This document shows positions 1,091-30,380 of a DNA stretch of 64,000 nt, piece after piece. This DNA is from Branchiostoma floridae (Eukaryota > Chordata > Leptocardii > Amphioxiformes > Branchiostomatidae). How positions within the stretch are numbered: position 1 is the stretch's first letter; each line of letters opens with the position of its first letter. Where the stretch lies: the NCBI RefSeq assembly GCF_000003815.2, contig NC_049983.1, forward strand, positions 15,558,425-15,622,424, read 5' to 3'. The notes below the pieces were generated by a model. The model did not search any database. It saw only the letters and a list, made by a program, of their open reading frames with translations, and was not told the origin of the DNA. The position numbers and the translations under genes were made by a program.

Positions 1091-2688
1091 TCAATAGCAA
1101 GGTTCTGTATGCAGTACCAATGCACCCCGCATGTGGAGCTTCTGAAATGCCCTAAATTCCTCTGGCATGTTATGAGTCCTATTGGCAGTATGGCTGATCA
1201 TCTCCTTGGTGTCGTAGTAGTGGTGCCGCAGTGCCCTGCCTCGTGTGTCCTCGCTGAACGGATAGAAGCCGTACATGTGGATCTGGTCGCAGATGGTGAC
1301 AGCCAGGGTGTACATGTGAGCTCCCGTGGACGGACGGAGCGCAACGATCTTATACCCAGCCTCTGTCCAAATTCTGTAACATACATTGTATATAATTATA
1401 TATATATATTCTACGTTCATGAAGGTTAGACATCAACACAATCCATCCAAGTATTCTCGAGTTATCATTTTTGCACACAAAGCCAACAAACATTCGCACC
1501 CCGAAAGCTCCAGAAAACATTGCCCTCCACTTTTAATGTGAAACTTACTTGTTCATGAGTTTGTTGATTCCCGCTGGGGGAAAAGCAGTCTTCATGGACA
1601 GATTGTGTTGGAGAATAATCTGAATGATGACCCTCGCGTACTTCTCTCCAAAGGCGGACGTTAAAACAGGTACATACAGGATCTGGTCGCCAACCTGTTT
1701 CAGACGTTCTAACAACCGATCGTAATCTGTGTGTGTTTTGTTGTTCCACTGTCCGAAGTTATTCTTGACCACCGATGGGTTCATTGTAGTCAGGTTCGCC
1801 TTGGAGCCGACATCTTTCTCGTAACCTTCGATCTGAGGCAGGTTACACCGAATGACGAAGTCCATGGAGTCAATTTCTTGACCACAGGAACTGTTCAACA
1901 CAATCCCAGAGTTGCCCACGACTGCGCATGTGTTGAAATGGCGGCCCTTCAGCGGTGATTCTTCTGGGATTAAGTTAAAGAAGTCGTCGGTGACCTTGAA
2001 TGACTTCGACTTCTTGGGACGATATGCAGATCCATATTTTAGACCTTGTCCAATCCGGACGCCGGATTTCTTTAGCGTCATATGTTTGTCGGGGTTGTAA
2101 AACTTGAGTATATGTTGTCTGGAAGTAGAAAATATTCTATTCAGCCAGTTTCGCGAGGTAAGGCAAGCAGAAACACGTGATGAAAAAGAATGCATGTTAC
2201 GAATAAGTCATTTAATCAGGAATACTGCATAGTAAAATAGAAATAGACAATTACCCCGAGTGTTTAACATATAGTTACGATGGTAACACTATCGTCTGTA
2301 TCTGTAACTTTGTGGCCGGTATAACACATCTTTTGTGTTTTATTTAGATATATATTGTCAAGGTGAAAAGGTTGTCCGAGCCTTTGGTCTATTGTCAATG
2401 TTTAACCTTGCCACCTTATACTGAAGAGTGTAAGCCATTTTTGAAAGAAAAACAAAACGATACATTTTGGTTCAGAAGCAAATGGCCACAACGTCTCTGA
2501 GTTCATACAAACATGTAAGATGATTGCAACACTGACATAGTGACGTACCTGTTTGTAGACTTCCTCGGGTGAAATCGTAGTTCTGAAATCATGGACCGTT
2601 GGAGCCTACTTAGGTATAACGTAACCAAGGTCAATGTAAAAAGGAGCGCTAGTCCTGTCCTGAATATTCTCGGCTTGTTACACGTCAT
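1091..2688 (-). CDS. ST8Sia-like alpha-2,8-sialyltransferase, gene B (three exons, no stem exon)
   Basis: Coding exons: 2549-2688, 1549-2118, 1091-1373; joined they give 330 aa. Exon 1 carries the signal anchor. Exon 3-type carries sialylmotif L (CAVVGNSGIVLNSSCGQEID... to IRCNLPQIEG) followed by DVGSKANLTTMNPS. The last exon has sialylmotif S (PSTGAHMYTL...CDQIHMYGF), motif III HHYYD and motif VS HNMPEE (H-x4-E). The GNSGI-LNS-CGQEID wording resembles vertebrate ST8Sia II/III/IV more than the GNGGIL type of ST8Sia I/V/VI. The enzyme should transfer sialic acid from CMP-sialic acid to sialylated glycans in the Golgi. No stem exon is present in the 430-bp gap between exons 1 and 3, yet both junctions are phase 2, so the short form is in frame. 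All splice sites are GT-AG. Linkage and acceptor specificity cannot be read from the sequence. Confidence 0.85.
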
Positions 2689-2817
2689 GACGAAATGTTT
2701 CCTCTGCACATGCAGAACGCTGTTAAAACATGACTTCCTGTCTCCGTGACTTCCTTGTTAAGGCATAACAGGTCATATTAAACCAGAACCAGAATCCGGT
2801 ATGACCCAGCCCGGTCA

Positions 2818-3527: not shown

Positions 3528-6500
3528 TCAATGGCATGGTTCTGTATGCAGTACCAATGCACCCCGCTTGTGGAGCTTCTGAAATGCCCTAAATTCCTCT
3601 GGCATGTTGTGAGTCCTATTGGCAGTATGGCTGATCATCTGCTTGGTGTCGTAGTAGTGGTGCCGCAGTGCCCTGCCTCGTGTGTCCTCGCTGAACGGAT
3701 AGAAGCCGTACATGTGGATCTGGTCGCAGATGGTGGCAGCCAGGGTGTACATGTGAGCACCTGTGGACGGTCGGAGCGCAACGATCTTATACCCAGCCTC
3801 TGTCCAAATTCTGTAGAATTACATTGTATACATTAATTATACATATATATCCTACGTTCATGAAGATTAGACATCAACACAACCCATCCAAGTATTCTCG
3901 AGTTATCAAGTTTGCACACAAACCAACAAACAGGCGCACCCCGAAAACCTAGTCCCGAAAACATAGCCCTCCAGTTTTCATGTGAAACTTACTTGTTCAT
4001 GAGTTTGTTGATTCCCGCTGGGGGAAAAGCAGTCTCCATGGACAGATTGTGTTGGAGAATAATCTGAATGATGACCCTCGCATACTTCTCTCCAAAGGCG
4101 GACGTTAAAACAGGTACATACAGGATCTGGTCGCCAACCTGTTTCAGACGTTCTAACAACCGATCGTAATCTGTGTGTGTTTTGTTGTTCCACTGTCCGA
4201 AGTTATTCTTGACCACCGATGGGTTCATTGTAGTCAGGTTCGCCTTGGAGCCGACATCTTTCTCGTAACCTTCGATCTGAGGCAGGTTACACCGAATGAC
4301 GAAGTCCATGGAGTCGATTTCTTGCCCACAGGAACTGTTCAACACAATCCCAGAGTTGCCCACGACTGCGCATGTGTTGAAATGGCGGCCCTTCAGAGGT
4401 GATTCTTCTGGGATTAACTTAAAGAAGACTTCGGTGACCTTGAATGACTTCGACTTCTTGGGGCGGAAGGCAGATCCATATTTCAGACCTTGTCCAATCC
4501 GTACGCTGGTTTTCGTTAGTGTCATGTTTTTTTCGGGGTTGTAAAACTTGAGTATATGTTGTCTGGAAGTAGAAATGATTCTGTTTAGCCACTTTCACGA
4601 CTCAAGACAATGAGAAAGACGTGACGAAGAAGTATATTCATGTTTAGATTTTATGTACAGTACTTAGAATATTGCTAATATTTTTGAATTTTTCTATCCA
4701 TGTCAGTTCCATTTGTATTGTCTTCGTCTCCGTCAGCCGGGTTACCCCTTTTGTTATAGCCACAAGCTACGCATGTAGTTAGGCAGCCCAAGTTGTGAGT
4801 ACTGAACAGCCAAACCAATAAATGAATGAATGTATAAATGTATGATTCTCTTGTTACAACATGGTCTAGGTTATATTTTATATATTGCCCAATCCTCAGA
4901 CTTGCTCGCGTCAGAGTCAGGCTTGTTTCCGGGTTGTAAAACTTGAGTATATGTTGTCTGGAAGTAAATACGAGTCAGCCAGTTCGATGAGATGAGACAA
5001 GGTGAAAGTTAACAGCAACATGCTTGTGATAAGAAAAGTATGTTCACGACAATGTTCAAAACACAAGATATCATAACCGCTAATTTCGCTGCAGTACGAA
5101 GTGAAGCCACTAGGGGGCCCGAAATCTAATCATTTCCAGTGTTCGTCACACCAGGGACGTTATATATGTGATATAACGTCCTTGATCCATTCATGTCCAT
5201 CCAGTCGTTCTTAAGTTTTCTAGCTAACAGACACAAAGACAGACAAATGCTACTGAAAATATATCATACATGAATATTTAATGAATGTAATAATGTCACT
5301 GTGCAGGGCTCGAAATACTGGGTGCATGTGCACCCAGGTGCACCCAAAATTGGACCTGTGCACCCAAATATTTTCTTGGGTTTATGTATGTAACGATATC
5401 AAAGTACACTAGTATACATCATATTCTTAACATCTCAGTGTTAGAAAGATAATAAAAATGTCTTTCATGGTACTTGTTTAAGAATTTGATAGCATGTAAC
5501 TAAGTTTTGAAATTAGGTTTTTCTGAAATTCTACTTAAATTTAAGTGGTACACCCAAAAATGTTTTGGTGCACCCAATTTTTTAAGCTGGGTGCACCAGT
5601 GCACCTAATAATCCCAAAAATGAATTTCGAGCCCTGCTGTGCTTACCTCATATTCTGCACCTCGGTACTATTGAAACACCAACGCTGCTTGCCGGATCCA
5701 TTCGGCCAAGCACAACTCTCCTTTGTTCCTGTTTCATTCAAAGTGGATGTCTCCGTTGGGGCTGGGATCCCTTCACTCTCATTCTTTGACACAGAAATCT
5801 CAGGTCGCAGCAGCTGTGCTGTATTGGCTTGCATAGAAGTCTGCTTTGTGGAATAGTATCCTATGGTACTGGGCCGCGTTGCAGGTGCTGCCACGAATAC
5901 CTTGATGAGATTTTTTGCTGTCTGCTTTTCGACACTGTAAAAGAACGGGTGGCTAATGATGCTGATAAGAATGGTACAGTTCTCTCACTATGGTCTACAA
6001 CTCTTGATTATATTGCTTTTTTGGAGGGCAGGAGGGATACTTGTTTAATTCATTGTCAAGGCACTGAGTCTCGTGGTTTGGTTTGTTTCCTCTCTCATCT
6101 CTGATCACAATGAATATACAATGTATACGCTTTCCCCATAATTGCTAAGACACACAAGACAGCCGATATCTTGGTACACCAACGCGTACGGCTACCCTTA
6201 GAGCATCGTCACCGGAACGGACTGCGCCTGCGCGACCCCTGGGGGTTTGNNNNNNNNNNNNNNNNNNNNNNNNNNNNNNNNNNNNNNNNNNNNNNNNNNN
6301 NNNNNNNNNNNNNNNNNNNNNNNNNNNNNNNNNNNNNNNNNNNNNNNNNNNNNNNNNNNNNNNNNNNNNNNNNNNNNNNNNNNNNNNNNNNNNNNNNNNN
6401 NNNNNNNNNNNNNNNNNNNNNNNNNNNNNNNNNNNNNNNNNNNNNNNNNNNNNNNNNNNNNNNNNNNNNNNNNNNNNNNNNNNNNNNNNNNNNNNNNNNN

Positions 6501-8273
6501 NNNNNNNNNNNNNNNNNNNNNNNNNNNNNNNNNNNNNNNNNNNNNNNNNNNNNNNNNNNNNNNNNNNNNNNNNNNNNNNNNNNNNNNNNNNNNNNNNNNN
6601 NNNNNNNNNNNNNNNNNNNNNNNNNNNNNNNNNNNNNNNNNNNNNNNNNNNNNNNNNNNNNNNNNNNNNNNNNNNNNNNNNNNNNNNNNNNNNNNNNNNN
6701 NNNNNNNNNNNNNNNNNNNNNNNNNNNNNNNNNNNNNNNNNNNNNNNNNNNNNNNNNNNNNNNNNNNNNNNNNNNNNNNNNNNNNNNNNNNNNNNNNNNN
6801 NNNNNNNNNNNNNNNNNNNNNNNNNNNNNNNNNNNNNNNNNNNNNNNNNNNNNNNNNNNNNGCATTGAAATCCCGCTGTTGGCACAGTATATGTTAGAGA
6901 CATGGTTTCATGTAAAACGTACACGGAGTTTTACCCTTATATACGCACACACTTTTTTAAATGCGGCCCTTTAGTAAACCGGGATATTAGCATGTCTATA
7001 CTTTTCGCGCAGGCGCAGTACGTTCCGGTGACGTGCTCTACCTTAGTGACGTCAAGGACAAAAAAAAAACACAGTACGGTAATCAGTTCAGACAAACAAG
7101 TGACTGCCGTAAAACTCAGAATCGAGCAAAGCAGTACGACGAAGTCTACGGTGGGAAAAGGGGGAGGTGTTACTTTCCAGCGTACGTAAAGCAAACAGTC
7201 ACAACACAAAGTTTGATGTCAAGCCACCGTGCCACGTGCACCTCATATTACAGATGGATCCTAAAGGGGTGCTTAAGCATTTGCACGAACCCTATGACAT
7301 TCGTACGAATATTATGTGATACGCACGAATCTTATGAAATTCGCACGAATCACTATGTGATACACACGGACCTTATGAGATTTGCACGAACCTTATGCGA
7401 AATTGCGCACCACTGCCTGGGTCACGTGACAGACGGAGCGGGATTTTCAAGATGGCGGCTTCGATCGGCGGCGACGGAAAACGATGTAAGACACAGAAAT
7501 GAAGGAAAACAGTAGCTCACATGCTATCAAATACGTCTTCGTGGTGGTATATGTCCATTCCATGCCTTCAAATATGAATATAACGGGTAGAAACGCTCAA
7601 AATCATGTCTTCTCCCGGTCGCCGTTTTGCATAAGGTTCGTGCAAATCTCATAACCTTGATACCTTGATACTGCATCCAGGAGAGAAGGCTTCATATAAT
7701 TCAGCCTGTTGTGTCCTGATCTTCGCTCTTCACGTGACATACTTTTGACAATCCTAGTATAAGGTTCGTGTGTATCACATAGTGATTCGTGCGAATTTCA
7801 TAAGATTCGTGCATTTTCGCATAGTGATTCGTGTGTATCACATAATATTCTTACGAATTTCATAGGGTTCGTGCAAATGCTTAGGCACCCCTGTCCTAAG
7901 TCATATCAAGGTGTGATATAACCTCCTTGGTCATATCTTTGAATGGAAGGAACGATACATTTGGCTATGAAACAAATAGGCGACAATGTCTCTGAACATG
8001 TAAGATAACGTTAGATTCTAAGTCATATCTTAAACGTTAAATGAAAGGAGCGATACATTTGGTTTACAAACAAATAGACGACAACGTCTCTGAACATGAA
8101 ATCACCCACCGTGTAGCCTTGTCACGGAAATTATTCAGGTGAAACCGTAGCTCAGCAAACATGGACTGCTGGCGCCAAACCACGTACAACATGGGCAAGT
8201 TCAACACGAACAAAAGCACCATTCCTGCCATGAACATCAGTCTTGGTGTATTACACGTCCTCTTTAAGCTCAT
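3528..8273 (-). CDS. ST8Sia-like alpha-2,8-sialyltransferase, gene C (chimeric locus)
   Basis: Coding exons: 8110-8273, 5647-5934, 3993-4562, 3528-3810; joined 434 aa. The start is the ATG at 8271-8273 (MSLKRTCNTPR), conserved in most paralogues. Exon 1 has the signal anchor; exon 2 is a stem with many Thr/Ser and several N-x-S/T sites ending FNSTEVQNMR; exon 3 has motif L; exon 4 has motif S, HHYYD and HNMPEE. Exons 3 and 4 are near-identical to gene B, while exon 2 is near-identical to the inner stem exon of gene D, so the locus is a recombinant of B-type and D-type copies. A truncated second exon 3 (4889-4957) lies between exons 2 and 3. Intron 1 contains an N gap (6250-6861), so an exon could be hidden there. 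A MITE starts 11 bp past the exon 2 donor. Confidence 0.7.
4690..4850 (+). repeat. Retroposon 3' end with (AATG)n tail
   Basis: The stretch ends in AATAAATGAATGAATG, a run typical of the 3' tail of SINEs or 5'-truncated non-LTR elements. It sits in gene C intron 2, next to the junction of B-type and D-type sequence. The family is not identified. Confidence 0.4.
4889..4957 (-). pseudogene. Truncated copy of ST8Sia exon 3 (gene C intron 2)
   Basis: Minus strand reads the exon 3 start (RQHILKFYNPETSLTL, then RASLRIGQ) with an intact acceptor (TTCCAG|A at 4958), then breaks at about 4889 into sequence resembling the intron beside exon 2 in gene D (ATGGTCTAGRTTATATT). Motif L is absent and no donor follows. 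It is closest to gene D exon 3 (NPESSLTLTRSSLRIG). It appears to be the stump of a D-type gene whose 3' part was replaced by the B-type unit. Using this acceptor would lead to premature termination. Confidence 0.75.
5090..5300. repeat. Dispersed repeat with CTAGGGGGCCC core, in gene C intron 2
   Basis: Contains CCACTAGGGGGCCCGAAATC and, downstream, CTAGCTAACAGACACAAAGA. Related copies: 9225-9345, 10390-10550 (gene D intron 2, without the GGGGGCCC core), 27780-28540 (several degenerate copies) and 33085-33345. The C and D intron copies are alignable, so this repeat predates the C/D duplication; the C copy has gained a small palindrome (GGGACGTTATATATGTGATA...). Confidence 0.55.
5304..5636. mobile_element. 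MITE with CAGGGCTCGAAAT inverted ends (hAT-like)
   Basis: Begins CAGGGCTCGAAAT and ends ATTTCGAGCCCTG. Inside both ends are clusters of a GTGCACCCA word in opposite orientations, as expected for subterminal transposase-binding repeats. A short direct repeat (CTGTG) flanks it. Gene D, alignable on both sides, lacks the element (empty site near 10550). It ends 10 bp before the donor of gene C exon 2. No coding capacity. A sister element is at 56009-56358. Confidence 0.75.
6204..7037. mobile_element. Inverted-repeat element around an assembly gap (gene C intron 1)
   Basis: Positions 6204-6236 (GTCACCGGAACGGACTGCGC, then CTGCGCG) recur inverted at 7006-7037 (CGCGCAGGCGCAGTACGTTC, then CGGTGAC). 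Between them lies the 612-base N run. This looks like a DNA transposon with terminal inverted repeats whose centre was not assembled. The content of the gap is unknown; long frames spanning it are artefacts of N. Confidence 0.5.
7261..7899. mobile_element. Foldback element with arms of 20-bp repeats
   Basis: Left arm 7261-7402 and right arm 7758-7899 are inverted copies. Each arm is built of about six units of roughly 20 bp (pattern ATTYGCACGAAYCTTATGWR). Outer ends: CTAAAGGGGTGCTTAAGCAT and its inverse AATGCTTAGGCACCCCTGTC. The centre (7403-7757) is unlike the arms and carries a promoter-like segment. No transposase is visible. It lies in gene C intron 1. Confidence 0.7.
7421..7485 (+). promoter_or_regulatory. 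Promoter and first-exon look-alike inside the foldback element
   Basis: A palindromic E-box GTCACGTGAC (7421-7430) is followed 17 bases after TCACGTGAC by TTTTCAAGATGGCGGCTTCG, a strong YY1-type start context with ATG at 7452. The frame reads MAASIGGDGKR and meets a consensus donor GAT|GTAAGA at 7486, phase 1. The eIF4E3 gene at 60.4 kb has the same arrangement. It may be a promoter and first exon captured by the element, or chance. No downstream exon is assigned. Confidence 0.3.
7900..8109. repeat. Partial tandem duplication of the exon 1 downstream flank (gene C)
   Basis: Two copies (7940-7998 and 8040-8098) share GCGATACATTTGG...AAATAG.CGACAA.GTCTCTGAACATG. The same flank follows exon 1 in B (2455-2520) and, weaker, D, E and G. 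It marks an ancestral intron 1 start. Confidence 0.5.
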
Positions 8274-9358: not shown

Positions 9359-12300
9359 TCAATGACATGGTTCTGTATGCAGTACCAATGCACCCCGCAT
9401 GTGGAGCTGCTGAAGTGCCCTAAATTCTTCCGGCATGTTGTGGGTCCTGTTGTCGATCATCTTCTTGGTGTCGTAGTAGTGGTAGCTGAGCGCCCTGCCT
9501 CGTGTGTCCTCGCTGAACGGATAGAAGCCGTACATGTGGATCTGGTCGCAGATGGTGGAAGCCAGGGTGTACATGTGAGCCCCCGTGGACGGACGGAGGA
9601 CCTCAGACCCAAACTTTGTCCAGATTCTGTAATGCATTGAGTTAGATATTCATCATGCACTTTATCATCATGATTTCGATTCAATTACTGAACAAAAACA
9701 AAAAAGGTCACTGAAGAAAAAGGTAAACTATTATACATCCCATTTTTCCAATTAGAATAGTTGAAGTGGTATCTCTACTTGAAAGGAAAACTTACGATTT
9801 GATGAGAGTGTTGATTCCGGTCGGTGGAAAGACAGTTTTGATCGGCAGGTTGTGCTGGTTAACAACCTCTATGATCACTCTCAAGTACCTTTCCACATGA
9901 GGGGCCGTTAAAGCGGGCACGTACAAGATCTGGTCGCCAACTTCTTCCAGACGTCGTAACAACCGATCATAATCGTCTTTTGTTTTCTTGTACCATTGTC
10001 CGAAGTTATTCCTGACCACGGAGGGGTTCATTGTAGTCAAGTTTGCCTTTGAGCCGACATCTTTCTCATAACCTTCGATTGGAGGCAGGTTACACCGAAT
10101 GACGAAGTCCATGGAGTCGATTTCTTGACCACAGCTACTGTTTAGTAGAATACCTGAGTTGCCCACGATTGCACACGTTTTAAAATGGCGGTCTTTCAGA
10201 GGCGATTCTTTTGGGATCAACTTCAAGAACTCTTTGCTGACTTTGAATGTCGACTTGGTACCAAATTCAAATGTCAAGCGTTGCCCAATCCGTAGACTTG
10301 ATCGCGTTAGTGTCAGGCTTGATTCCGGGCTGTAAAACTTGAGTATATGTTGTCTGGAAGTAAAAACGAGTCAGCTAGTTCGATGAGTTCTAATCATTTC
10401 CAGTGTTCGTCATACCCTACCAACACACCAAATATGTAACCAATCCATTTATATCCATCCAGTCGTTCTTGAGTTACCTAGCTAACAGACACAAAGACAG
10501 ACAAATGCTACTGAAAATATATCATACATTGATATTTCATGGGGGTAATGTAGTGCTTACCTCATATTCTGCACCTCGGTACTATTGAAACACCAACGCT
10601 GCTTGTCGGATCCATTCGGCCAAGCAAAACTCTCCTTTGTTCCTGTTTCATTCAAAGTGGATGTCTCCGTTTGGGCTGGGATCCCTTCACTCTCATTCTT
10701 TGACACAGAAATCTCAGGTCGCAGCAGCTGTGCTGTATTGGCTTGCATAGAAGTCTGCTTTGTGGAATAGTCCTTGACGCTTCGTGTGGTATTAGGCCGC
10801 AATGCAGGTGCTGCCACGAATACCTTGATGAGATTTTTTGCTGCCTGCTTTTCGACACTGTAGAACGGGTGGCTAATGTTGATAAGAAAGGTAGTTCTCT
10901 TGCTATCACATGGTCTAGATTATATTGCTTTTATTTTTTTTTGGGGGGGGGGGGCTACTTTTATAATTCATTGTCAAGGTACATAAAGGACTACTAACCC
11001 GGGAGATATTTTTGCAGTTGTACATGTAAATCGCATTCAGCGTAGCAGGAAGTAATCAAAACCTTATTTTTATGATAATATAAACACGGCATTGAACAAG
11101 ACGCGTGTGTAACTCTAGATTCTTCACATATAGACGTGCGACTTGAAGTATAGAATAATGTAGTGCTTACCTCATAGTCTGCACCTCGGTACTGTTGAAA
11201 CACCAACGCTGTTCGGAGTCAATTCCTGCTGTATTTATTTCATCCAAAGTGCCTGTCTCAGACTTGGCAGCTTTTCTACGCTTCACTACTCGCTTAATGA
11301 TTTTGCTAACTTTCCTTCTCTCCTTCGGTGGGGTTGGAGCTCGCTTACTCTCCGTTGTTGTCATAGTAACTCCAGGTGCCGATAGTTGTGCTGCACCGCT
11401 TTGCAAACAAGTCTGATTGGTGGAATAGGCTCTGACGCTCCCTGGGGTATCGGGTCGTTTTGAAGTTACTGCCACGAATTCATTGATGAGATTTTTTGCT
11501 GCCTGCTTTTCGACTCTGTAAGATTTATTCCAATTATCCGTTGAAAAAAAGTATAATTCTCTTGTTATCACATGGTCTAGATTATATTTCATTTAGTTTG
11601 GGGAGAAATACTTGCAAATTGCATTATCGTATTTTTTACTATCAAGGTGACAATGTTGGCCTAAAGTGCCCTGGTTCCAATTCCACGGTAACGAGGCCTT
11701 GGGAAAGGCACGGAACACATACTCAGTTGATGATAAGTAGGTAGGGGCGCCCTCTCGGACCAGACGTTATGTCGGAGGTCCATTGTTTGAGGGGAGCCAC
11801 ACCTCGAGCACGTTAAAGAAGCTTGACATAATTATGTTATTAAGCTTCAATGTAATTGTCACTAGGTGAGTTTTTGTCAAGCTGATTGACCGACCTGGTG
11901 TGCTACGTATCTGTGACTACTATTTATGGTAGTTCAAAACTTCAACAACGCATAAGGCAAGAAATCGATCGAGTAGGCGCTATATTGATCGAGCGAAAAA
12001 CAAACGACTGAGTCACTCAAATGTAAACACAACTCATGAAAGTTCAATGTTCACTGTTTCACATTGTCACCTCACATTAAAGAGAGACTAAAACCTATTT
12101 CGTTAAAAGAAATTAGCGGTTTGGTTCAGAAACAAATGGACGGCACCGTAAGATACTGTAATACCCACCGTAATGTCGTGTCATGGGAGTCACTGGCAAA
12201 CTTTTTCAGGTGAAATCGTAGTTCTGCAAACATGGACTGCTGGCGCCAATTCACGTACAACATGAGTAAATTCAACACAAATAGAAGCACCATTCCTGCT

Positions 12301-13538: not shown

Positions 13539-16500
13539 TCATTGGCATGGTTCTGTGTGCAGTACCAATGCACCCCGCATATGGAGCTGCTGAAATGCCC
13601 TGAATTCTTCCGGCATGTTATGAGTCCTGTTGCTGATCATCTCCTTGGTGTCGTAGTAATGGTAGCCCAGCGCCCTGCCACGTGTGTCCTCGCTGAACGG
13701 ATAGAAGCCGTACATGTGGATCTGGTCGCAGATGGTGGCAGCCAGGGTGTACATGTGAGCTCCCGTGGACGGACGGAGGGTCTCAAAACCAGCGTTTGAC
13801 CAAATGCTGTAAAAAGATATTTTGTTTACATGCTAATTATGTAGCTCGATTTGGATTACAAAATCAAGACAACAGTGCAATTTCCAAACAAGCAAAATAC
13901 CCTGATATTCTTATTTAGATAGGACTGAGGTGATGTCTTGTTTATTTGCTTGTTTGTTTGAATCGCACAGCAAAAATATTACATAAAACAAACACAATGA
14001 AGAAAAACAAGTACAGGAGGAGGGGAAAGCATAATCTCAAAGCAGACTCCCGGTGACATATAAGATACAATTTAGCATCAAAGCAGGCCAAGGTGTAAGG
14101 AGGTCAGCCTCTGGTCGGCTATACTCCTTGGCCGGCTTTGATACTTAATTGTATCTTATATGTCACCGGGAATCTGCTTGGAGATTAATGAAAGCGTGCG
14201 TGGCTTGTACTCAGCCCTCTCCATTGAGCTAAAGAAATTTAATTATGTAGATAGCAAAGTATTTGTATCTGTATCTATATAGCCAGTATAACCGCCCTTC
14301 GGCGTAACACACCAGCTTCGCAGGCACACGGCGCGGCAGCAGCTGGTTATATTACACTGAACGATCCGTCACACCTAACTTTTGCACATCTATCTGCAAG
14401 CTTTCTTTAAAACTATCCAGACAAGATGCTCCTACTGTGCTTGGTGATAACAAGTTCCATTTTAAAGTAATATACCAACTTACGATTTCATGAGAGTGTT
14501 CATTCCCGCCGGTGGAAAGGTAATCTTGGCCGCCAGTTTGTGCTGCAGAACGATCTGTGTGATGATCCTCACGTGCATCTCTCCTGACGGTGACGTCAAA
14601 CCCGGCACGTACAAGATCTGGTCGCCGACTTGTTTCAGACGCCGCGACAACCGACGGTAGTCCTTCCCGAAGTCGTGCGGGATCACGGAGGGGTTCATGG
14701 TGGTCAGGTTCGCCTTGGAGCCGACATCTTTCTCATAACCTTGTTAAAATTGTAAATATGTAAAAATTGTGCATATAGACGTGTAGAATTATAAGGCTCA
14801 TAAAGACTTTAAACGATGTAAATTGTATCTCTGTTACTAAGTATATGCTTTGTCTGACCCTTACTTCTTCCCTCATGACCTCATGACATCTCTCTCATAA
14901 CCTTGTTAAAATTGTAAATGTGTAAAAATTATGTATATAGACGTGTAGACTTATAAGACTCATCAAGACTTTAAACGATGTAAATTGTATCTCTGTCACT
15001 AAGTATATGCTTTGTCTGACCCTTGCGTGCTTCTTCCCTCATGACCTCATTGAAAAGCGGCTTGCAGGCCGATTTGAGCTTTCATGAATAAACAAGGGTT
15101 CAAACAAACAAACAAACAAACAAACAAACCTTCGATTTGAGGCAGGTTACACCGAATGACGAAGTCCATGGAGTCGATTTCTTGCCCACAGGAACTGTTC
15201 AGTAGAATCCCAGAGTTGCCCACGATTGCACATGTGTTGAAATGGCGGTCCTTCAGAGGTGATTCTTCTGGGAGGAGCTTCAGTAAATCTTTGGTGGCCG
15301 TGACCTTCTTAGATAATTGAATTTCATATGTCAAACGTTGCCCAATCCTTACACTGGACTGCGTTAGAGTCAGGTTTGTTTCCGGGTTGTAAAACTTGAG
15401 TATATGTTGTCTGGAAGTAAAACGATTATATTTAGCCATCTCCAAGAGTAAAACTAAAAGCAACAGCAAGACGTTGTATCGGGAAAACTGTAACTTTTAC
15501 CAAACTTCGAGTGAAATTCGTTCAATCTGAGATATCACGTGTATATAGTTGAATAAAAACTTTGCTTCTGTGTTTAATCGGTTTTCTTCTCTATCTTAAG
15601 TTGTCCGGCTCTGACATGGTTCGTGCCATCACAAGCCATGCAATGTCTCGCACTGAGGCAGTTCTATCAAAGTGATGATTACTGAACAACTAGCAATCCT
15701 TTGAGATATAAAATACGGTAGCACTTACCTCATATTCTGCACCTCTGTACTGTTAAAACACCAACGCTGCTCCGATCCATCTCGCCTGGAGCAACTCCGC
15801 TTTGTCCTTGCTTCATTCGTACCTGCACCTGGCGTTGCAGTTTTCTTGCGCTTCAATACTCTTACTTTCGGCTTCGGTGACACCTTTTTAGTTTCCTTCT
15901 TGGAACCAGTAATCCCATGTCCTAATAGTTCTGCTGTGTTCTTTTGTACAGAAGCTTTATTCGTGCCATCGGCTTCGGTACTTCCCATGGTTGTTGTTGA
16001 CATGAAATCTTTGATGAGGCTTTCGGCTGTCTGCATCTCGACGCTGTCAAATGATGATGGTTAAAAATGTGTAAATTGTTATCCAAATGACGAATTATGT
16101 TCGTTTGCTGGTAAGATACGGTGGGATATTTATTGATAAGTGTCTATTCTCCATCGTGCCTGTATTCATTCCCAACCCAAGACACGCGATACTTTGATAA
16201 CAACGGCTCCCTTTCAGAGGGCCTCATGGATAAACAAGTGCTGATCTGGCGACAATAAGGATCCGGATACTGTATCATGAAACGGAGTAAGATCGCCTTA
16301 CAACAAGGGACCGGTTGTAGTGCAGGTGGCCATATATTCTTATGCATCTCTTTCTCAGTTTTTTTAATCTCTTGAAGATGTTTTCTATCCTCATGGTAGT
16401 CCTTCGGTTGATTCCCCTGACCGCTATATCTTAACGCAATATTTTATGTCCACTCAAAATGAAATAAAGTGAACAAATAAAACCAAACGATTTTTGAACC

Positions 16501-16824
16501 AGCCTCACATCAACGACAAATTACGAGCTATTTCGTCGAAAGAAAGAAACGATAAATCTTCCTGAAGTAGAAAGGGAAGACAATGTTACACAAAATTACG
16601 ATAATAACCACATACCCTTGAGATGTCTGACGGAAGTCACTTGTTGCCATCTTCCTGTGAACTCGTGCTTCTGCATACGTGGACCGCTGGTGCCAACTTA
16701 TACACAGCATACCCAGGGTCCATACAGATAGATTTACCATCCCTGCCATGAATATTCTTGGTATGTTACACCTCTTTAAGCACATGAAGAAATGTCCCCT
16801 AAACACAGACCACTGTTCAGTCAT
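13539..16824 (-). CDS. ST8Sia-like alpha-2,8-sialyltransferase, gene E (exon 3 split by a retroposon)
   Basis: Coding exons: 16616-16824, 15729-16043, 15130-15410, 14484-14739, 13539-13806; joined 442 aa (429 from the inner ATG at 16785). Exon 1: signal anchor (MAGMVNLSVWTLGMLCISW region). Exon 2: stem with a basic run (KPKVRVLKRKK) ending CFNSTEVQNMR. Exon 3 is interrupted after IRCNLPQIE by 390 bp of foreign sequence, but GAAG|GTTTGT and AACAAG|GTTATGAG can serve as donor and acceptor, restoring E-G-Y-E and the frame. Without that splicing the frame stops within the insert, shortly after motif L. The last exon has motif S, HYYD and HNMPEE. All other splice sites are canonical. Either a working gene with a new intron or a recently broken one. 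Confidence 0.7.
14040..14185. mobile_element. MITE in gene E intron 3
   Basis: Arms AGCAGACTCCCGGTGACATA...GATACAATT (14040-14075) and AATTGTATCTTATATGTCAC...CTGCTTGGAGATTA (14145-14187) are inverted copies, with a further GGCCAAGG / CCTTGGCC pair inside. The CTGCTTGGAGATTA end links it to the MITEs at 48717-49021 and 49523-49664. Confidence 0.75.
14740..15129 (+). mobile_element. 3'-truncated non-LTR retroposon inserted in ST8Sia exon 3
   Basis: Flanked by the direct repeat AACCTT (14737-14742 and 15127-15132). It ends in an A-rich (CAAA)n tail after CATGAATAAACAAGGGTTCA. The body holds two tandem copies of a 160-bp segment (from TTGTTAAAATTGTAAAT to the ATGACCTCAT region). A related 3' end (AAAAGCGGCCTGCAGGTCGA...ATGAATAAA) is at 30115-30190. 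All other paralogues have uninterrupted exon 3, so the insertion postdates the duplications that separated E from its closest relatives. It carries no coding sequence. Confidence 0.85.
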
Positions 16825-29275: not shown

Positions 29276-30114
29276 CACGTGACGCGGGAGCTATTTTTGA
29301 CTCAGACCGACAGGTGTTTCCTGACTTATGAAAACTGATGATGCCTCCGGGAAAACGGTAGATTTTTGCTTGTCTGTATGTCTGTCTGCCTGTTTTTTAT
29401 GTTTCCTTTGCTAGGCTCTACAAGTCTCTTCAAGGCATGTCAGTTTTATTGCAATGGCGCCAAGTTCTTTTGCACTCGGGTTCTTGAAGCGTCGTTCACA
29501 GCAGCGTGATATAAACCGACATGTCTGATATGATGAGCCACCGGAGAAAAGGTTCGATTCGTAGTCTTTGCTTAACAGGCTAGTTTTACCGTTAGGATCG
29601 TCTCAACATCTATGCGTCATTCAGATATACATATATCCGTGACAGGTGGTGTTTGCACGCAAGGTATATCTAAACATTTTTTGTACGGCGGAACGGAAAG
29701 ACATGGAAATTATGAAATATATACACAATGACAACAACGGTGGGAGTGCCAAAAATAAGATCATACAGATAGTTCAAATCCACATATAATCAAGAAAGAT
29801 ATGCAAGTAATGAAAATATGAGGCACAGGAATGCAGTCACAAGATTAAAGATCAGCTGACACAACATGACCACACATTGAAACCCGGAAGATACACCCAC
29901 CCACACCCCTTTGGAACAATGGCTATGCAGATATTATACTAGTAATTTAGATACAATAGAGGACGAATGTCAGTTTGTAATAGAATATAGATTGTATAGC
30001 GAAGAGAAACTTGAACTGTATAAGGTTGTACAAAACCCTACTTCATTCATCCGTATTTCATTCACTCAACTTCTGTAGAAAAATCCATATTCCTAATGCA
30101 ACTGACTTTACCTC

Positions 30115-30380
30115 CTTCATGACCTCAATGAAAAGCGGCCTGCAGGTCGATTTGAGCTTCTCATGAATAAAGGAAGGATTAAACAAACAATTCATCGATT
30201 ATAGAATATCTGTTCTTTTATCTTCACTGTAACAGAAATGTGAGGAGAAGATAGATTTATCCATGGCCAACGATGGGCTAACTGAATCTGTTCAACATGT
30301 TTGTTGTGACCTGTACCTAGCCCAGTGTGATAAAATGTATAATAAAGACCTTCATTCACTCACTCACTCATTCATTATTT
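30115..30380 (+). repeat. Retroposon 3' ends downstream of gene H
   Basis: At 30115-30190 there is a 3' end like that of the gene E insertion (ATGAATAAA, then AAACAAACAA). Directly after it, 30215-30380 ends in (ATTC/ACTC)n following AATAAAGACC. Two independent retroposon tails; no coding sequence. Confidence 0.5.

What the first reader, a model, noticed from the sequence alone, without database searches (positions are those of the whole stretch)
14740..15129. Retroposon insertion that looks like a newly born spliceosomal intron in ST8Sia gene E
Seen: exon 3 of gene E is interrupted inside motif L by 390 bp ending in (CAAA)n, flanked by the direct repeat AACCTT. On the gene's strand the repeat is AAGGTT. 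This gives GAAG|GTTTGT at one edge and AACAAG|GTTATG at the other; removing 14740-15129 restores I-E-G-Y-E exactly, and the joined exon is 537 nt (179 codons). The insert is oriented so its inverse offers T-rich sequence and TTTAC/TTTTAAC branch-like words before the acceptor. Known: transposon target-site duplications containing AGGT can create introns (protosplice model). Inference: a fresh intron, specific to one member of an array whose sisters are uninterrupted.
Basis: partly seen in the sequence, partly recalled or inferred. Interest (0 to 1): 0.88.

Follow-up and report, generated by a model that had tools for sequence, protein, structure and literature searches.

The report
LINE retroposon turned into an intron
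A piece of a "copy-and-paste" parasite (a LINE) jumped backwards into the coding part of one sialyltransferase gene of a lancelet and now looks like a removable intron, and other copies of the same parasite form or begin introns in conserved genes, which suggests that this kind of element can make new introns in an animal related to us.

Summary
The insert is real. 14740-15129 splits exon 3 of one gene in a tandem ST8Sia array. Leaving out exactly these 390 bp gives an intact 442-aa, four-exon GT29 sialyltransferase; 10 of 10 relatives in the assembly that span the point lack the insert. It is an antisense copy of the 3' end of a CR1-like LINE. Read antisense, the (CAAA)n tail supplies the donor AAG|GTTTGT, and the target repeat supplies AAG as acceptor. 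The same build occurs elsewhere in the genome: two PCYT2-like paralogs have introns (247 and 252 nt) that are LINE end to end, an MCAT-like gene has LINE at both intron edges, and both joined proteins align without gap to solved homologues. Other copies abut exon ends, for example in DMAP1. Among 96 copy flanks, AG|GT-flush ones look coding more often (6/10 versus 8/86). Best reading: a LINE-made, introner-like spliceosomal intron. Splicing was not tested, and both splice sites are weak.

The parts
16616..16824 (-). gene E exon 1 (ATG at 16824; donor AGG|GTATGT)
15729..16043 (-). gene E exon 2 (donor GAG|GTAAGT)
15130..15410 (-). gene E exon 3a, ends ..QIEG within sialylmotif L (motif name from the finding)
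14740..15129 (-). putative new intron: antisense LINE 3'-end copy, 390 nt, 34% GC, phase 1
15127..15132 (.). target-site repeat AACCTT (gene strand AAGGTT), donor side; intron starts GTTTGT at 15129
14737..14742 (.). target-site repeat AACCTT, acceptor side; intron ends AAG at 14740
14885..14904 (.). copied stretch of exon 3 (19 of 20 bases as in 14723-14742) trapped inside the insert; holds the third AAGGTT and a second acceptor
14905..15129 (+). LINE unit 2 with full 3' end, AATAAA and (CAAA)n tail
14743..14884 (+). LINE unit 1, tandem copy together with exon stretch 14723-14742
14753..14761 (-). branch-point-like TTTAC words, A at -22 (14761) and -14 (14753); no AG between them and the acceptor
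14865..14901 (-). possible 37-nt poison exon: internal acceptor AAG|GTTATG and donor GAA|GTAAGG; reads into a stop
14484..14739 (-). gene E exon 3b, starts GYEKDVGSK.. (donor ATC|GTAAGT)
13539..13806 (-). gene E exon 4 with stop
30113..30190 (+). second, diverged 3' end of the same LINE family in the window (87%)

Best explanation
A CR1-like LINE retrotransposed into exon 3 of gene E, antisense to the gene, at the sequence AAG|GTT. Target-primed synthesis joined its (CAAA)n tail to the exon, so the gene-strand reading is AAG|GTTTGT..., a usable 5' splice site. The target duplication left AAG at the other edge as 3' splice site, with a TTTAC branch-like word 22 nt upstream. Splicing removes exactly the insert and leaves the protein unchanged. 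Later a tandem duplication copied 20 bp of exon and the LINE's 5' part, lengthening the intron to 390 nt. Shown: anatomy, family membership of the insert, otherwise intact gene, absence in 10 of 10 relatives that span the point, and the same arrangement in PCYT2-like and MCAT-like genes. Inferred: splicing, order of events, and the target-primed route.
For: Removal restores 442 aa with PF00777 at 3.6e-53. Six sisters in the window and four more relatives, L060-L063, run through this point uninterrupted: 10 of 10; one further fragment (L058) does not reach it. dN/dS of E against its six sisters is 0.26-0.44, against 0.24-0.38 among sisters. If neutral since the tandem duplication, the chance of an unbroken E gene is 0.5-4% at t=0.029. 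The insert is a member of a large family (best outside copy 87%; 357 of 390 nt covered by at least 2 other copies). PCYT2-like introns in L125/L126 are LINE over 247/247 and 252/252 nt, AAG|GTTTG..AAG|GT; the joined L126 protein aligns without gap across the junction to ethanolamine-phosphate cytidylyltransferase 3elb, 1.9e-38. MCAT-like L124 has CAG|GTTTG..CAG|GT, gap-free to mitochondrial malonyl-CoA-ACP transacylase 8csp, 9.6e-29. Their acceptors score as low as E's on the array matrix (-7.1, -12.8, -8.5 against -8.5).
Against: No transcript was available. The donor has T at +3, as none of 21 array donors has (4 of 21 have T at +4); it ranks 12th of 192 GTs in the pre-mRNA, and the acceptor (AAG, against CAG 20 and TAG 1 of 21) ranks 66th of 221 AGs. 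A better-scoring internal donor GAA|GTAAGG and a duplicate acceptor lie inside the insert. E versus H has the highest dN/dS of all pairs, 0.444. The survival test weakens to 7-18% at t=0.015, near the low end of the clock. AG|GTTTG copies are only twice as common as the GA|GTTTG control (16 against 8; p 0.076). Nine of the 16 AG|GTTTG places show no clear coding exon.
Confidence: 0.74

Rival explanations
1. Recent gene death: the LINE broke gene E, the transcript keeps the insert and ends at the stop after ..LQAAFQ, and the other exons have not yet decayed.
For: Retained insert gives IEGLFVCLFVCLNPCLFMKAQIGLQAAFQ*; weak splice sites; E also has a 7-residue in-frame gap against its sisters.
Against: The two LINE units differ at 9 of 161 sites, long enough that an unselected gene would usually be broken; dN/dS near that of the sisters; the same LINE edges would have to be spliced for the PCYT2-like and MCAT-like proteins to be made.
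Confidence: 0.18
2. Alternative or regulated splicing: besides exact removal, the internal acceptor (14902/14901) and donor GAA|GTAAGG (14864) make a 37-nt poison exon or a stop-containing isoform, so the insert works as an off-switch.
For: Internal acceptor copy and the best-scoring donor in the exon-3 region; the acceptor stretch was duplicated with the exon.
Against: Scores only; no transcript.
Confidence: 0.2
3. The LINE does not make introns but lands at 5' splice sites of existing introns; the PCYT2-like and MCAT-like genes had older introns whose remains were deleted, so they say little about intron creation.
For: L010, L015, L029, L131 and L137 sit at exon ends where, read by eye, intron sequence continues beyond the LINE; what looks like the old donor follows the LINE in L137 (GGAG then GTGAGG) and L029 (AGGTA). 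The MCAT-like intron has about 177 nt of non-LINE sequence inside and 4 uncovered bases at its acceptor.
Against: PCYT2-like introns have no base left uncovered by LINE; gene E's site is empty in 10 of 10 relatives that span it, so E at least was not an older intron.
Confidence: 0.3
4. Assembly or allele artefact: the insert belongs to one rare haplotype or a misassembly.
For: Single assembly; no second haplotype to compare (next best match 84%).
Against: Clean junctions and exact frame restoration.
Confidence: 0.05

Closest known systems
Introners (Gozashti et al. 2022, PMC9860276; section 7 and found passages read)
   Same: A repeated element inserts into coding exons, carries one splice site and takes the other from the target duplication (their case C carries the 5' site and co-opts the 3' site); in most families the mRNA length is unchanged.
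   Different: The paper describes them as mostly consistent with DNA transposition; in its main text 'reverse transcri' has 0 hits and 'retrotransposon' 1, in a reference title, and amphioxus, Branchiostoma and chordate have 0. Here the element is the 3' end of a LINE with a simple-repeat tail, in a chordate.
SINE/Alu intronization (Sela et al. 2007, PMC2394776; passages read; rice catalase SINE intron cited there)
   Same: A retroposon inserted into an exon creates an intron.
   Different: The four Alu cases are alternative introns in 3'UTRs. Here a coding exon, a LINE, the donor from the antisense tail and the acceptor from the target repeat.
Protosplice/AGGT duplication model of intron gain (recalled; a sentence on duplicated AGGT providing intron boundaries was seen in PMC2394776)
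   Same: Duplicated AGGT at both edges.
   Different: Here AGGT is duplicated by LINE insertion, and a second, separate tandem duplication of exon plus LINE followed.
ST8Sia EX tandem genes of Branchiostoma floridae (Harduin-Lepers et al. 2008, PMC2564942; passages read)
   Same: Tandem amphioxus ST8Sia genes.
   Different: The passages seen do not speak of an extra intron in one member; the whole word 'intron' has 0 hits (the plural was not searched).

Membership tests
Introner | repeated, similar sequence families that constitute introns at several unrelated positions | tested here: met
   Gene E, the PCYT2-like pair (counted as one event) and the MCAT-like gene share the family at both intron edges; only three independent positions found
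Introner | inserted into an exon that was uninterrupted before | tested here: met
   For gene E only: 10 of 10 relatives that span the point are uninterrupted; not testable for PCYT2-like and MCAT-like genes
Introner | spliced from transcripts | not testable with these tools
   no RNA data; only indirect support from frame and homology
Introner | at least four introns per family (retention rule seen in PMC9860276) | tested here: inconclusive
   four places (E, L124, L125, L126), three independent; only 16 AG|GTTTG places and two AGGTATG places were enumerated
CR1/L2-like LINE | 5'-truncated copies sharing one 3' end with a simple-repeat tail | tested here: met
   39 copies with variable 5' ends, common 3' end and mostly (CAAA)n; 260 places with the 35-nt 3' end at up to 1 mismatch
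CR1/L2-like LINE | APE endonuclease and reverse transcriptase upstream | tested here: inconclusive
   In L035 PF14529 1.3e-8 and PHD 2e-7, but RVT_1 only 0.04 on a truncated piece, below its cut-off; clade not resolved by a tree
GT29 sialyltransferase (ST8Sia) | GT29 domain present after removal of the insert | tested here: met
   PF00777 3.6e-53 over 196-432
U2-type spliceosomal intron | GT..AG ends, branch-like word, restored frame | tested here: met
   consensus fit is weak

The most novel reading that the evidence does not exclude
In amphioxus the antisense 3' end of an APE-type (CR1-like) LINE works as an introner. Its (CAAA)n tail becomes a GTTTGT donor, the target repeat becomes the acceptor, and integration is favoured at AG|GT, both at existing exon ends and inside exons. 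A single autonomous retroelement family would then be an ongoing source of new, protein-neutral introns in a chordate.
Probability: 0.5. Interest if true: 0.92.

Novelty: new variant of a known kind. Interest (0 to 1): 0.84.

Why it matters
How spliceosomal introns arise is a long-open question. Genome-scale intron gain has been tied mainly to introners consistent with DNA transposition, with few animal groups (PMC9860276, passages). Here one can read a case with a known donor element, a polarised empty state in ten relatives, and sibling cases in conserved enzymes. It also offers a simple reason: a CAAA tail read antisense resembles a splice donor. It can be tested with amphioxus RNA-seq and sister-species genomes.

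Tried and rejected
Allele test: searching the assembly with exon 3a of gene E found no second haplotype (next match 84%), so polymorphism could not be judged. Strong sequence preference for AG as the whole cause: not borne out, since AG|GTTTG gives 16 places and the GA|GTTTG control 8 (one-sided p 0.076). The flanks of 7 of the 8 GA places could not be read, so their coding status is unknown. AGGTATG tails gave only the two copies already held. Copy number from TTTG...: 652 matches, but one copy counts several times, so not used. Pfam found nothing for the exon proteins of L010, L015 and L029 nor for L029 and the PCYT2-like protein, and only a weak unrelated hit (Ysc84, 0.055) for the MCAT-like one; PDB searches named PCYT2 and MCAT. 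Literature searches that were answered; no listing showed a LINE-made intron in amphioxus.

Dropped rows and known biases: three of 99 copies (L016, L032, L047) were lost by the tail finder. The 39-copy set gave me the idea, so it is not an independent test; the 60-copy set alone gives AG before 6 of 19 G-starting tails (p 0.0006) and coding 3 of 7 against 3 of 53 (p 0.017). In one search the bases GTA were trimmed only from AG|GT-flush flanks ending in them. Near-donor cases (L009, L017, L041, L089) were judged by eye and are in no test as such. Script one search failed and was mended.

Full report
WHAT IS THERE. Gene E lies on the minus strand (16824 to 13539) in a tandem array of ST8Sia-like genes. 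Exons 16616-16824, 15729-16043, 15130-15410 plus 14484-14739, and 13539-13806 give 442 codons with no stop once 14740-15129 is left out; the product matches GT29, PF00777, at 3.6e-53. With the insert kept, the frame reads IEGLFVCLFVCLNPCLFMKAQIGLQAAFQ and stops. The assembly is 513 Mb in 431 contigs, with the window at C5:15558425-15622424.

THE INSERT IS NOT SIMPLE. It holds two units, 14723-14884 and 14885-15050, 94% alike over 140 nt. The first 20 bp of each is exon 3 sequence (GACATCTTTCTCATAACCTT and GACATCTCTCTCATAACCTT). So the element entered first, and then a stretch of exon plus the element's 5' part was tandemly duplicated. Each other copy scored matched at most about 220 of the 390 query bases. 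The units differ at 9 of 161 sites, K 0.058 (95% interval 0.026-0.111), plus a 4-bp indel in which unit 1 has the family's length. The insertion is older than that, so 'fresh' is too strong.

WHAT THE ELEMENT IS. The unduplicated part is about 225 bp ending in AATAAA and (CAAA)n. Whole-genome BLAST scored 40 of 1745 first-look candidates, the best outside one at 87%. Fetched copies share the 3' end and differ in 5' extent, as truncated LINE copies do. Upstream in some copies lie LINE protein pieces: in L035 a PHD finger (2e-7) and an APE-type endonuclease, PF14529 (1.3e-8), with weak RVT_1 (0.04) on a broken piece; in L017, L031 and L039 what I recognise as the end of ORF2, which makes the element a 3'UTR. 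I call it CR1-like; no tree was made.

THE EMPTY SITE IS ANCESTRAL FOR GENE E. Six sister genes in the window and four further relatives (L060, L061, L062, L063) run through this point without interruption, 10 of 10; one further fragment (L058) does not reach it. dN/dS of E against its six sisters is 0.26-0.44, against 0.24-0.38 among the sisters; the top value is E with H. A simulation of neutral decay since the tandem duplication gives 0.5-4% for an unbroken gene at the central clock value and 7-18% at about half of it. This favours a gene that stayed useful after the insertion.

HOW IT COULD BE SPLICED. On the gene strand the tail reads AAG|GTTTGTTTG, and the far edge reads TTTTTACATATTTACAATTTTAACAAG|GTTATG. 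The best branch-like word has its A at -22, with no AG between. Both sites are weak: donor 12th of 192 GTs (matrix recalled, human-like), acceptor 66th of 221 AGs (matrix from the array's 21 acceptors). A better-scoring donor (GAA|GTAAGG, 14864) and a second acceptor lie inside the insert and could make a 37-nt poison exon.

THE SAME ELEMENT IN OTHER GENES. An exact pattern for a tail flush with AG found 14 places; a looser anchor found 16, including those 14. Gene E itself is in neither list because its tail is longer than the allowed gap. I read both sides of all 16. Three places (two events) are introns with LINE at both edges: two PCYT2-like paralogs (L125, L126; introns 247 and 252 nt, every base covered by at least two other LINE copies) and an MCAT-like gene (L124; 424 nt, LINE over 1-204 and 382-420, other sequence for about 177 nt between and 4 uncovered bases at the acceptor). 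The joined proteins align across the junction without gap to ethanolamine-phosphate cytidylyltransferase (3elb, 1.9e-38) and mitochondrial malonyl-CoA-ACP transacylase (8csp, 9.6e-29); that these are the human or mammalian enzymes is recalled. Two more of the 16 (L010; L131, identified as DMAP1 by PF16282, 1.6e-7) end a coding exon but the intron continues past the LINE. Two (L127, L130) sit beside duplicated exon ends. Nine show no clear coding exon (L128 has one open frame of unknown meaning). Outside this list, L137 (weak Mcl1_mid hit 0.0064, below cut-off, WDHD1-like), L015 and L029 also sit at exon ends; after the LINE, L137 and L029 continue with what looks like the old donor, flanked by short repeats. 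Exon ends and acceptors here were placed by eye.

IS THIS MORE THAN CHANCE. I took the tail-side flank of 99 copies: 39 best BLAST copies and 60 of the 260 places holding the 35-nt 3' end (the 50 exact ones not yet held and the first 10 one-mismatch ones not yet held). Ninety-six could be parsed. Of 28 tails beginning with G, 7 follow AG, against 6% AG in the flanks (p 0.001). AGGT-like words lie in the last 15 bp in 13 cases, against 5 to 9 per 15-bp step further out. Scoring the 90 nt before the edge for codon use, 6 of 10 AG|GT-flush flanks look coding against 8 of 86 others (Fisher p 0.0005); the five highest scores are all AG|GT-flush. Since the 39-copy set suggested the idea, the 60-copy set is the cleaner test: AG before 6 of 19 G-starting tails (p 0.0006), coding 3 of 7 against 3 of 53 (p 0.017). 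The score was trained on the ST8Sia array and passed 80% of coding and 3.5% of intron windows of that same array. Against a plain sequence preference, AG|GTTTG is only twice as common as the GA control (16 against 8, p 0.076).

LIMITS. No RNA was available; no sister species could be searched; whether PCYT2 and MCAT had older introns at these places is unknown. Gene conversion between LINE units would make the clock too young. The link to exon ends may come from selection, targeting or both.

KNOWN OR NEW. Introners are the nearest kind (PMC9860276, section 7 and passages read): their case C also carries the 5' splice site and takes the 3' site from the target duplication. Alu intronization in human 3'UTRs and a rice SINE intron are the nearest retroposon cases (PMC2394776, passages read). 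I found no report of LINE-made introns in amphioxus in the listings; the library holds open-licence papers only. I file this as a new variant: introner-like intron gain by an antisense LINE tail in a chordate.

Noticed in passing
window 10561-10865 and 11171-11515: Gene C has two exon-2-like copies, both with GAG|GTAAGC donors; possibly alternative exons.
   Followed up: no
window 1097-2709: No exon 2 was found for gene A by tblastn; exon 1 joined straight to exon 3 gives an open frame of 330 aa.
   Followed up: no
window 4867-4959: Stray copy of the first 31 residues of exon 3 in gene B, between its exons 2 and 3.
   Followed up: no
window 14032-14187: Inverted repeat, 66-nt arms, 91% complementary, 24 nt apart (fold-back element) in the intron between exons 3 and 4 of gene E.
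   Followed up: partly
L127 (C8:18242000-18242830) and L130 (C12:2490050-2490880): LINE copies flanked by duplicated exon ends, as if exon-and-LINE duplications like that in gene E recur.
   Followed up: partly
L009, L017, L041, L089: Antisense LINE tails about 6-11 nt downstream of what look like 5' splice sites; judged by eye, hinting at an integration hot spot just inside introns.
   Followed up: partly
L060 (C1:1328500-1334500): Dispersed ST8Sia copy with an uninterrupted exon 3 but exon 4 matching in broken pieces; may be a decaying gene.
   Followed up: no
window 7283-7390 and 7765-7844: Short tandem arrays (41- and about 20-bp units, GCACGAA... and its complement) within gene B, between its exons 1 and 2.
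   Followed up: no
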